A stretch of 64,000 nucleotides of DNA. Origin: Marinimicrobium alkaliphilum. Lineage in GTDB: Bacteria; Pseudomonadota; Gammaproteobacteria; Pseudomonadales; Cellvibrionaceae. This document shows positions 13,091 to 36,598 of this stretch, in pieces. Every line of letters starts with the position of its first letter. The stretch's first letter is position 1. Under the pieces are notes generated by a model. That model was given only the letters and a program-made list of their open reading frames with translations, searched no databases and was not told the origin of the DNA. Position numbers and translations under genes: made by a program. The stretch lies in assembly GCF_003259155.1 (NCBI RefSeq), contig NZ_QGMQ01000001.1:186001-250000 (forward strand), read 5' to 3'.

Positions 13091-13126
13091 ACGCCCCCTC
13101 GCGCAACCCGTGATTGCGTGAAATTT

Positions 13127-13362
13127 GGTGAGGTGGCCGAGTGGCTGAGCCGAAGGCAACGCCCGAAGGGGCGGTAACGCGCACGCTGGCGGGTGCCTCC
13201 ATCCAAGTACGATAGAGTAAGAGCACAGGAAAGACGATTTTATTGGTGAGGTGGCCGAGTGGCTGAGCCGAAGGCAACGCCCGAAGGGGCGGTAACGCGC
13301 ACGCTGGCGGGTGCCTCCATCCAAGTACGATAAAGTAAGAGCACAGGAAAGACGATTTTATT
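13127..13362 (+). repeat. Two 118-bp tandem units, each starting with the first 22 bases of tRNA-Ser
   Basis: Units 13127-13244 and 13245-13362 differ at a single base (GATAGAG versus GATAAAG). Each begins with the same 22 bases as the intact tRNA-Ser that starts exactly one period later at 13363. The remaining 96 bases contain GGCAACGCCCGAAGGGGCGG and lack any tRNA body. The series therefore looks like a tRNA 5' end copied twice upstream of the full gene, by slippage or by an element using the tRNA as target. No protein-coding gene is visible here. Confidence 0.93.
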
Positions 13363-13450
13363 GGTGAGGTGGCCGAGTGGCTGAAGGCGCACGCCTGGAA
13401 AGTGTGTATACCGAAAGGTATCGAGGGTTCGAATCCCTCCCTCACCGCCA
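13363..13450 (+). tRNA. tRNA-Ser (anticodon GGA)
   Basis: A type II tRNA with a long variable arm. The acceptor pairs GGTGAGG with CCTCACC and the discriminator is G. The anticodon GGA at 13397-13399 sits in the loop CTGGAAA of a CACGC/GTGTG stem. The variable arm is TATACCGAAAGGTATC, and the T loop is GTTCGAATC. CCA is encoded at 13448-13450. Confidence 0.97.
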
Positions 13451-13460
13451 TATACAAAAA

Positions 13461-13484
13461 AACCCGGCAACTGCCGGGTTTTTT
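13461..13484 (+). terminator. Rho-independent terminator after tRNA-Ser
   Basis: AACCCGGCA pairs with TGCCGGGTT around a two-base loop and is followed by T residues, ten bases after the CCA. The stem is nested inside a longer inverted repeat made from the tRNA 3' end. Confidence 0.93.
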
Positions 13485-13485
13485 C

Positions 13486-13790
13486 GTATATGGCGGTGAG
13501 GGATGATGTGGTTCAAACCCTTGTTCGACCGATCGCCAGGAGCGATCGGTACCGCCGCAGGCGCCCGAAGGGCAGAGCACACGGATGTGCTCTGGTATAT
13601 CCCCCCTCGTGCCGCCGGGACAGCCGTTTTGCACGGCCGAAGGCCGCCCGAAGGGCGAGGGCCATGGATGGCCCGAGTGAATCCCTCGCACCGAAGGGCA
13701 GAGCACACGGATGTGCTCTGGTATATCCCCCCCTCGTGCCGCCGGGACAGCCGTTTTGCACGGCCGAAATGCCGCCCAAGAGCAAGAACA
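13486..13790 (+). repeat. tRNA-Ser trailer element: inverted tRNA 3' end, hairpins and a direct repeat
   Basis: Bases 13486-13503 are the reverse complement of the last 17 or so bases of tRNA-Ser plus its flank (GTATATGGCGGTGAGGG). Next come a hairpin CCGATCGC/GCGATCGG, a GC-rich stem and a hairpin GAGCACA/TGTGCTC. The segment 13565-13641 is then repeated as 13691-13768 with one extra C. Between the copies lies another hairpin, GGGCCAT/ATGGCCC. Open frames here encode only low-complexity Arg/Pro/Gly peptides and are not credible genes. A diverged copy of the first half follows tRNA-Arg. Confidence 0.85.
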
Positions 13791-13799
13791 GCGCGAACT

Positions 13800-13902
13800 G
13801 TCGGATTACGCCCTGCGGGCTAATCCGACCTACTGGAAACGCCGTGCCATTGTTCGAGTAGGTCGGATTAGGCGCAGCCGTAATCCGACACCTGAGGCAC
13901 CT
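13800..13902. repeat. BIME-like palindromic repeat B
   Basis: Two palindromes, 13800-13833 and 13858-13889, with arms GTCGGATTA/TAATCCGAC, are separated by a linker containing CGTGCCATTGTTCG. The element ends with the cap ACCTGAGGCACCT. The arrangement is the same polar unit as in clusters A, C and D, and it lies between the tRNA-Ser trailer and the tRNA-Arg promoter. Confidence 0.9.
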
Positions 13903-13928
13903 GACATCAAAAAAATCCGAAAAAATGC

Positions 13929-13957
13929 TTGACGTATCCGGCACTTATCAATAATAT
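13929..13957 (+). promoter_or_regulatory. Sigma-70 promoter of tRNA-Arg
   Basis: TTGACG (13929-13934) and TAATAT (13952-13957) have an ideal 17-base spacer and a GC-rich discriminator (TCGCCCCC). The tRNA starts 18 bases after the -10 element. Confidence 0.85.
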
Positions 13958-13974
13958 TCGCCCCCGTTGACAAC

Positions 13975-14051
13975 GCACTCGTAGCTCAGCTGGATAGAGT
14001 ACTCGGCTACGAACCGAGCGGTCGGAGGTTCGAATCCTCCCGAGTGCGCCA
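13975..14051 (+). tRNA. tRNA-Arg (anticodon ACG)
   Basis: The acceptor pairs GCACTCG with CGAGTGC, with discriminator G and an encoded CCA at 14049-14051. The anticodon ACG is at 14009-14011 within a CTCGG/CCGAG stem. The D arm is AGCTCAGCTGGATAGAGT and the T loop GTTCGAATC. The first anticodon base is expected to be edited to inosine. Confidence 0.97.
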
Positions 14052-14056
14052 CATAC

Positions 14057-14090
14057 AAAAACCCTGCCTCGCAAGAGGCGGGGTTTTTTT
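14057..14090 (+). terminator. Rho-independent terminator after tRNA-Arg
   Basis: CCCTGCCTC pairs with GAGGCGGGG around GCAA, preceded by A residues and followed by seven T residues. Confidence 0.93.
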
Positions 14091-14215
14091 ATGTGCGCTC
14101 GGCGGGCAGGTGAGAACCTCCGCAGGTTCGACAAATCGCCGGGAGCGATTTGGCCCGCCGAAGGCGCCCGCAGGGTGGCGCACAGGATGTGCGCTAAGCT
14201 ATCCTCTCCGCACTC
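14091..14215 (+). repeat. tRNA-Arg trailer element related to the tRNA-Ser trailer
   Basis: The segment aligns to 13486-13610 downstream of tRNA-Ser. Both contain GTTCGAC, a hairpin enclosing ATCGCC-GGAGCGAT, a CCGCC-AGGCGCCCG stretch and a hairpin around CACA-GGATGTG. The stems differ by paired changes: CCGATCGC/GCGATCGG becomes CAAATCGC/GCGATTTG, and GAGCACA/TGTGCTC becomes GCGCACA/TGTGCGC. The compensatory changes suggest selection on an RNA or DNA structure. It ends about 30 bases before the next gene and could form its leader. Confidence 0.75.
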
Positions 14216-35611: not shown

Positions 35612-36598
35612 TAAATGCCTGATCCAAGATCAACGGCTCGACTGGGGTGACGCGGGTAACTCGGACCAGCGCCGTGAGCTCGGCTTTGGCTCGGGCTTCA
35701 ACTCGCGCGACCTGGAAGAAAATTTTAGCTACGACACCATGAGCCGCCTGACTGGCTAGTACGCCAGTGGCACTTTTACTGCCTACGAGAGTTATGCCTA
35801 TGACACTCGGGATAACCTCACCAACAAGGCCGGTGTCACCCACCGTTACGGCGCCCAGTGCAGCGCCAGCCAAAACGCCGGCCCCCACGCGCTTTGCCGT
35901 GCCGGTAGCACCAACTACAGCTACGACAACAACGGCAATGTTGAGAAAATCCACTACCTGGACAATACTGTCCACTGGCGCCGACAGATCGGCGGCGTGG
36001 CCATTATCAAGGAAGAGCGCACCACTGGCGGTGGTTTGATCAACAGTGAAACCCACTATGTCATTCGCGACCACTTGGGCAGTACCTCGTTATTGACTGA
36101 CCATACCGGTGCGGCGACCCAGGAGTTCTACTATGACCCCTGGGGCCAGCCGAGAAAGCCGGTCTTTGGCAGCGGCTCTTACTGGCCACAACTGGATCAA
36201 CCCTTTCGGGTAGTGCTCAAGCCGGATACCACGCGGGGCTACACGGATCATGAGCATTTGGATGAAGTAGGCCTGACTCATATGACAAAATTGTCTGGAA
36301 CAATTTTGAACGTCGCGTAGCGGAAGCCCGCAGTGCGAGCCTCACGGATGAGGCGAGTAGCGGCCGGGTATACGACCCCAAACTCGCCCGCTTCGTCCAG
36401 ACCGACCCGATCGTACAGGACCCGCGCACCACCCGGAGCCTGAACCGGTACAGTTATGTGTGGAATAATCCGCTCAATGCGACGGATCCGAGTGGGTATA
36501 TTTTCAGCAGCATTCACCGGACGCGTGAGTGTGAAACGGAAAAAGAAATGGCCAGGCTATATCAATTAGTTTAGGCGCTATTATTCCTGCAAACTGAG
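35612..36598 (+). pseudogene. Rhs/YD-repeat protein remnant with truncated C-terminal tip
   Basis: The frame reads a YD-repeat sequence (NFSYDTMSRLTG, SYAYDTRDNLTNKAG, NYSYDNNGNVEKI) and then the conserved end of an Rhs core (YVIRDHLGSTSLLTDHTGA, EFYYDPWGQPRKP). An in-frame TAG at 35757-35759 interrupts the YD region. Near 36280 the frame breaks, with an inserted segment of about 80 bases that contains an inverted repeat (CAAAATTGT/ACAATTTTG). The core then resumes as VYDPKLARFVQTDPI and NRYSYVWNNPLNATDPSGY. Only about 30 residues follow the core boundary, so the toxin domain is missing or truncated. The first thousand or more residues of a normal Rhs protein are absent. Confidence 0.85.

What the first reader, a model, noticed from the sequence alone, without database searches (positions are those of the whole stretch)
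13486..14215. Structured element shared after tRNA-Ser and tRNA-Arg with compensatory base changes
The two trailers share order and loops while stem bases change in pairs: CCGATCGC/GCGATCGG to CAAATCGC/GCGATTTG, and GAGCACA/TGTGCTC to GCGCACA/TGTGCGC. Paired change is evidence that structure, not sequence, is kept. It follows two different tRNA terminators, so it may be a tRNA-linked mobile repeat or a processed RNA.
Basis: partly seen in the sequence, partly recalled or inferred. Interest (0 to 1): 0.65.

Follow-up and report, generated by a model that had tools for sequence, protein, structure and literature searches.

The report
RtT-like four-hairpin insert at tRNA ends
After two tRNA genes of this bacterium sits a roughly 70-base, four-hairpin module that turns out to be a divergent relative of E. 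coli's RtT tRNA-trailer RNA and is spread through gammaproteobacterial genomes, where it interrupts copies of tRNA genes, tips of palindromes and even a protein gene, and carries two loops that look like binding sites for the global regulator CsrA.

Summary
Window 13486-13610 (after tRNA-Ser) and 14101-14210 (after tRNA-Arg) share a four-hairpin core with paired changes; on a 12-sequence unfitted alignment 41 cells show two-sided changes (shuffled mean 12, 0/500 reach it). A covariance model of the core finds a large family: 120/144 genomes of the same family and 150/369 sampled Gammaproteobacteria. It also recovers all four E. coli K-12 tyrT RtT repeats, and Rfam's RtT model hits many of the same relative loci in register, so this is RtT-type, but too divergent for Rfam's cut-off in this genome. 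The core interrupts extra tRNA copies at the T-loop (TTCGA^ATCC) or D-loop (YGA^A); whole interrupted tRNA-Lys and tRNA-Ala genes stand beside intact copies. It also occurs away from tRNAs; one copy is a clean 69-nt in-frame insertion in rsuA, absent from seven relatives. Two hairpins present GGA loops (both in 209/243 copies) matching the published CsrA consensus; two have GNA loops. I read it as a mobile, palindromic RtT-type module, possibly giving CsrA-binding trailer RNAs. Insertion is shown; the mobilising enzyme, transcription and CsrA binding are not.

The parts
13363..13450 (+). intact tRNA-Ser(GGA)
   Evidence: ARAGORN and Rfam
13451..13503 (+). terminator hairpin whose stem runs on into an inverted copy of the tRNA-Ser 3' end (32-bp arms, 97%)
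   Evidence: I1; z -13.8
13523..13528 (+). 5' half of a duplicated T-loop (GTTCGA)
13529..13593 (+). four-hairpin core, copy 1: HP1 13529-13549 (loop CAGGA), HP2 13554-13562 (GCA), HP3 13563-13573 (GAA), HP4 13574-13593 (ACACGGATGT)
   Evidence: (E 3.1e-29, but this copy is in the seed)
13596..13603 (+). 3' half of the T-loop/T-stem (TATATCCC), followed by a degraded tRNA-Ser 3' end
13608..13685 (+). second, diverged core copy (R1 E 4e-8)
   Evidence: G000:C1:199608-199685
13688..13732 (+). truncated third copy (HP3-HP4, 42 bp identical to copy 1)
   Evidence: (D5)
13975..14051 (+). intact tRNA-Arg(ACG)
14052..14122 (+). terminator and inverted copy of tRNA-Arg 3' end
   Evidence: I4
14124..14206 (+). 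split T-arm (AGGTTCGA / CTATCCT) holding a core copy: HP1 14132-14152, HP2 14157-14165, HP3 14166-14176, HP4 14177-14194
   Evidence: (E 5.7e-24, in seed)
13125..13360 (+). two tandem 118-bp units: tRNA-Ser 5' half interrupted in the D-loop after GGCTGA by GNA-loop mini-hairpins (GCCGAAGGC, GCCCGAAGGGGC), closed by CCTCCATCC
   Evidence: (D1)
36286..36353 (+). dispersed copy of the core inside an RHS-like coding region (R1 E 0.001)

Best explanation
The feature is a divergent RtT-type element: a mobile, palindromic, four-hairpin module of about 70 nt that has inserted into the T-loop of extra copies of tRNA-Ser and tRNA-Arg 3' ends (and, as a short variant, into the D-loop of tRNA-Ser 5' halves) next to the intact genes. 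Shown here: shared fold with covariation; host-tRNA-specific flanks around a common core; tRNA genes interrupted beside intact copies; a precise insertion in rsuA; dispersal across Gammaproteobacteria. Inferred: it spreads as a folded single strand into YGA^A sites in hairpin loops without target duplication, using an unidentified enzyme; when transcribed as a tRNA trailer it is an RttR-like RNA whose two GGA loops (HP1, HP4) can bind a CsrA/RsmA dimer and so act as a small CsrA decoy or tether. The mobile RtT-type identity is the firm part; the CsrA role is the likeliest function but I give it only about 0.35 on its own.
For: Fold and covariation. RtT kinship: the window tRNA-Arg copy aligns to RtT positions 1-130 (19.7 bits); R1, with no E. 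coli in its seed, finds all four K-12 tyrT repeats (E 6e-4 to 0.026, 70 kb search); RtT and R1 hit the same places in register, e.g. G024:C1:220325-220458, G026 x3, G027:C167, G035:C1:292699-292828, L060, L061, L066, L067. T-loop insertion: 3' flank matches own tRNA 11.4/15 vs 8.0/15 for other tRNAs; 32 of 81 adjacent hits continue the host T-loop exactly for 9 nt. Whole tRNA-Lys and tRNA-Ala interrupted at the T-loop, tRNA-Ser at the D-loop, beside intact genes (L055, L138, L159, L324, L365). Filled/empty rsuA: exactly 69 nt, in frame, two filled and seven empty genomes, RsuA confirmed by NCBIfam. Spread. CsrA-type loops: GGA in both HP1 and HP4 loops in 126/145 and 83/98 copies even though the HP1 loop type differs (CNGGA or CAGGANNG); ACANGGA(T/C)GT exactly in 102/242 vs 0.1 shuffled; published SELEX consensus RUACARGGAUGU, ANGGAN hexaloop and CsrB repeat CAGGA(U/A/C)G (PMC7652899); GGA sites mostly 43-48 nt apart.
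Against: No transcript, no binding data. A terminator separates tRNA and element in the window. CsrA co-occurrence is weak (135/150 element-positive vs 178/219 negative genomes have csrA, OR 2.1, p 0.026; some near-complete positive genomes lack it). The very stable stems are not what SELEX favoured (four or fewer pairs). E. coli RtT itself lacks the GGA loops. Fold stability is better with DNA than RNA energies and no better on the + strand; G-U over A-C mismatch is only about 3:1 and mostly at one pair. RF00391 does not find the elements in this genome even at E 10. No enzyme identified: Y1 (RAYT-type) transposases are absent from three element-rich genomes and the core is near at most 2 of 30 Y1 loci. 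Only one protein-gene insertion was resolved by filled/empty comparison.
Confidence: 0.6

Rival explanations
1. A purely DNA-level palindromic repeat (REP/MITE/RPE-like). The hairpins matter only as folded single-stranded DNA for movement or survive through quasi-palindrome correction; the RNA is irrelevant.
For: Dispersed copies in tips of long inverted repeats and inside genes; GNA loops in HP3 in 131/145 and 91/98 copies, a loop type known for unusually stable DNA mini-hairpins (own knowledge); better z-scores with DNA energies and equal on both strands; whole stems swapped with few G-U intermediates.
Against: Conserved, strand-specific GGA loops matching the CsrA consensus; same-strand orientation behind most tRNAs; the relative rttR is annotated as an ncRNA in E. 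coli.
Confidence: 0.4
2. tRNA-processing mimic: the inverted tRNA 3' end and the copied 3' end pair to form an acceptor/T-arm mini-helix ending in CCA, cut by RNase P and 3' exonucleases, so the trailer is a stable tRNA-like RNA; the core is its cargo.
For: Architecture in L048, L085, L097, L356 and E. coli tyrT.
Against: A strong closing helix (at least 6 kcal better than mismatched flanks) is present in only about a fifth of tRNA-linked and under a third of other copies; the overall test is not significant for tRNA-linked copies (p 0.12); the 3' copy is degraded in the window.
Confidence: 0.15
3. Remnants of integrative elements or phages that use tRNA 3' ends as attachment sites, with the core as attP arm sequence.
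For: T-loop junctions and Ser/Arg/tmRNA targets resemble integrase sites.
Against: The unit is 120-200 bp without cargo; D-loop sites, rsuA and palindrome tips are not integrase sites. Integrases were not searched for systematically.
Confidence: 0.05
4. Degenerate duplicates of tRNA genes that drifted into hairpins, with no common element.
For: Parts are tRNA copies.
Against: Same core behind unrelated tRNAs, in many genera and at non-tRNA sites, with strong covariation.
Confidence: 0.02

Closest known systems
RtT RNA (Rfam RF00391; rttR / tyrT-tyrV trailer repeats of E. coli)
   Same: Tandem units behind a tRNA; inverted tRNA 3' end, GGTTCGA, four hairpins including a GCA-loop and a CCCGAAGGG hairpin, then ATCC and the rest of the tRNA 3' end.
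   Different: Here behind Ser, Arg and tmRNA (elsewhere Asp, Phe, Ala, Pro, Lys, Glu) rather than Tyr; terminator between tRNA and unit; GGA loops in HP1 and HP4 absent from E. coli; below Rfam's cut-off (19.7 vs 45 bits).
REP elements (GTAG- and CGTC-tagged palindromes; PMC3733652)
   Same: Short palindromic repeats dispersed between and inside genes of Gammaproteobacteria.
   Different: REPs are 20-40 bp single stem-loops with a GTAG or CGTC tag, the GTAG ones tied to RAYT transposases; this is a 70-nt four-hairpin unit with no such constant tag and no RAYT link.
Rickettsia palindromic elements (RPE)
   Same: In-frame insertion of a palindromic unit in a protein gene.
   Different: Size, sequence and tRNA-loop targeting; comparison from memory and a passing mention in PMC3733652.
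CsrA/RsmA-sequestering RNAs (CsrB/C, RsmX/Y/Z, RsmV)
   Same: Hairpins that present ANGGA or CAGGA(U/A/C)G.
   Different: Only two sites per unit, embedded in a mobile repeat; binding untested. The RsmV match is 16.9 bits against a cut-off of 100.

Membership tests
RtT (RF00391) | Score over the curated gathering cut-off | tested here: not met
   19.7 bits vs 45 for the window tRNA-Arg copy; genome search finds none of the elements. Relatives G012, G004, G042, G037 do pass.
RtT (RF00391) | Same order of parts: inverted tRNA 3' end, GGTTCGA, hairpins with GCA and GAA loops, ATCC plus tRNA 3' end | tested here: met
   Full-length alignment 1-130; E. coli sequence
RtT (RF00391) | Reciprocal detection by an independent model | tested here: met
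   R1 finds all four K-12 copies; E-values modest (6e-4 to 0.026) and for a 70 kb search only; the whole E. coli genome could not be searched
RtT (RF00391) | Processed RNA released from the tRNA transcript | not testable with these tools
   no transcript data
REP / RAYT system | RAYT (Y1 transposase) association | tested here: not met
   No Y1 transposase in G024, G022, G065; core near at most 2 of 30 Y1 loci
CsrA-binding RNA | GGA in hairpin loops with the ACANGGAUGU-type context | tested here: met
   against PMC7652899
CsrA-binding RNA | Binding to CsrA/RsmA | not testable with these tools
   no assay
CsrA-binding RNA | Occurs only where csrA occurs | tested here: inconclusive
   OR 2.1, p 0.026; 15 positives without csrA, mostly incomplete genomes

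The most novel reading that the evidence does not exclude
A class of very small mobile elements, so far seen only as E. coli's orphan RtT RNA, that insert as folded single strands into the loops of hairpins (tRNA D- and T-loops, palindrome tips) and that carry paired CsrA-binding hairpins, so that their spread seeds the genome with CsrA decoys tied to tRNA transcription.
Probability: 0.25. Interest if true: 0.85.

Novelty: new variant of a known kind. Interest (0 to 1): 0.6.

Why it matters
RtT has long been an orphan RNA of one E. coli operon. If it is one member of a class-wide module that jumps into tRNA loops, its function becomes testable by comparison, tRNA-trailer arrays in many genomes get a common explanation, and a new kind of hairpin-loop-targeted insertion (and possibly a new source of CsrA-binding RNA) is open to experiment.

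Tried and rejected
Rfam at gathering score found only tRNAs; most sub-threshold Rfam hits are chance matches to the long terminator hairpin. RAYT/Y1 transposase as mobiliser: not supported. CsrA co-occurrence as a decisive test: weak. Closing helix as a universal part: only a subset. RNA folding as proof of an RNA: DNA energies do better, strands equal. Literature: no held paper describes RtT relatives, this repeat or its sequence; only open-licence papers were searched and RtT's original papers were not found there.

Full report
Observation. The two trailers are as described. tRNA-Ser ends at 13450 and tRNA-Arg at 14051. Each is followed by a terminator, an inverted copy of that tRNA's own 3' end, GTTCGA, and a four-hairpin core; the two cores are 80% identical over 59 nt. 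The paired changes quoted are correct. In twelve copies from this and six other genomes, aligned by MAFFT, 96% of pair cells are standard pairs against 82% after shuffling, 41 cells change on both sides against 12, and the covariation score is 0.459 against 0.174 (0 of 500); sliding the partners removes it.

Anatomy. HP1 has a CNGGA loop (in other taxa often CAGGANNG), HP2 and HP3 have short loops mostly of the form GNA, HP4 has ANGGAY. The core is bounded by TTCGA on the left and ATCC on the right, the two halves of a tRNA T-loop. Over 132 tRNA-linked hits the sequence right of the core matches the 3' end of the tRNA upstream at 11.4 of 15 positions, against 8.0 for other tRNAs, and 32 of 81 adjacent hits continue the T-loop exactly for nine bases. 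So the unit is a second, split copy of the host tRNA's 3' part with a common insert.

Kinship. The tRNA-Arg unit aligns to the whole of Rfam's RtT model but at 19.7 bits, below the 45-bit cut-off. E. coli K-12 carries four such units behind tyrT and tyrV, one annotated as the RNA RttR. A covariance model built only from the present sequences (R1) finds all four (E 6e-4 to 0.026), and RtT and R1 hit the same stretches in register in several relatives. I therefore file the element as RtT-type by architecture, not as a member by Rfam's rule, which it fails.

Range and context. R1 hits 120 of 144 genomes of the same family, often ten or more copies, and 150 of 369 genomes sampled over the class; an exact-pattern scan names Xanthomonadaceae, Rhodanobacter, Sedimenticola, Thalassolituus, Kangiella, Microbulbifer, Marinimicrobium, and the betaproteobacterium Methyloversatilis. 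In this family most fetched hits follow tRNA-Ser, Arg, Asp, Phe, Ala, Pro or tmRNA on the same strand. Many others lie away from tRNAs, often in the tip of a long inverted repeat such as GTAGGAGCCTGCTTGCAGGCGA...TCGCCTGCAAGCAGGCTCCTAC or GGTTACTTTTCTTT...AAAGAAAAGTAACC.

Evidence for insertion. In two genomes of one genus the rsuA gene holds exactly the core, 69 nt and in frame, after GACAACGA; seven relatives lack it. In L055 a whole tRNA-Lys gene is interrupted at GGTTCGA^ATCC with two intact tRNA-Lys genes next to it; tRNA-Ala is interrupted likewise in L138 and L159; tRNA-Ser is interrupted in the D-loop at GGTCGA^ or GGCTGA^ in L324 and L365. The two 118-bp repeats just upstream of the window's tRNA-Ser (13125-13360) are of this D-loop type, with a shortened insert, and recur in G019, G096 and, in a more diverged form, G087. 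The shared site is YGA^A and no target duplication is seen. That the module inserts as a folded single strand is inference from the hairpin-loop targets.

Function. GGA stands in both the HP1 and HP4 loops in 126 of 145 and 83 of 98 distinct copies, although the loop type of HP1 differs between taxa. 102 of 242 copies contain ACANGGA(T/C)GT, against 0.1 in shuffled sequence. CsrA's SELEX consensus is RUACARGGAUGU, RsmE binds ANGGAN hexaloops, and CsrB repeats CAGGA(U/A/C)G (PMC7652899). The two sites are mostly 43-48 nt apart, which by general knowledge a CsrA dimer can bridge. Against this, the stems are long, E. coli RtT lacks these loops, and csrA co-occurrence is only weak. Thermodynamics do not single out the RNA: z-scores average -3.7 and -3.9 with DNA parameters on the two strands against -2.6 and -3.1 with RNA parameters, and G-U exceeds A-C about 3 to 1, largely at one pair. 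A DNA-only palindrome is therefore a serious rival.

Verdict. Ordinary explanations (decayed tRNA duplicates, integrase remnants) do not cover the facts. The finding is a divergent, mobile RtT-type element; its link to CsrA and its way of moving are open.

Noticed in passing
window 13799-13890: A REP-like pair (GTCGGATTACGCCCTGC... / GTAGGTCGGATTAGGCGCAGCCGTAATCCGAC) lies between the two tRNA genes, unrelated in sequence to the RtT-type core.
   Followed up: no
window 36286-36353: A copy of the core lies inside an RHS-like coding region. Flanks were not joined because RHS genes can be effectors.
   Followed up: partly
G000 C23:33-116, C1:775317-775392, C32:1-72 (L109, L111, L112): Several copies sit at contig ends, so these repeats may break assemblies and copy numbers are probably underestimates; the C23 copy faces the opposite way to tRNA-Phe.
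   Followed up: partly
window 13435-13505: The tRNA-Ser terminator stem is extended to 32 bp by the inverted tRNA 3' end (RNA fold z -13.8), so a read-through transcript could pair with the tRNA's own 3' half.
   Followed up: no
L130, L156, L161, L173 around 1201-1283: Longer dispersed units that hold the core followed by a conserved GCGTCGG(C/A)... hairpin, recurring in one genus.
   Followed up: no
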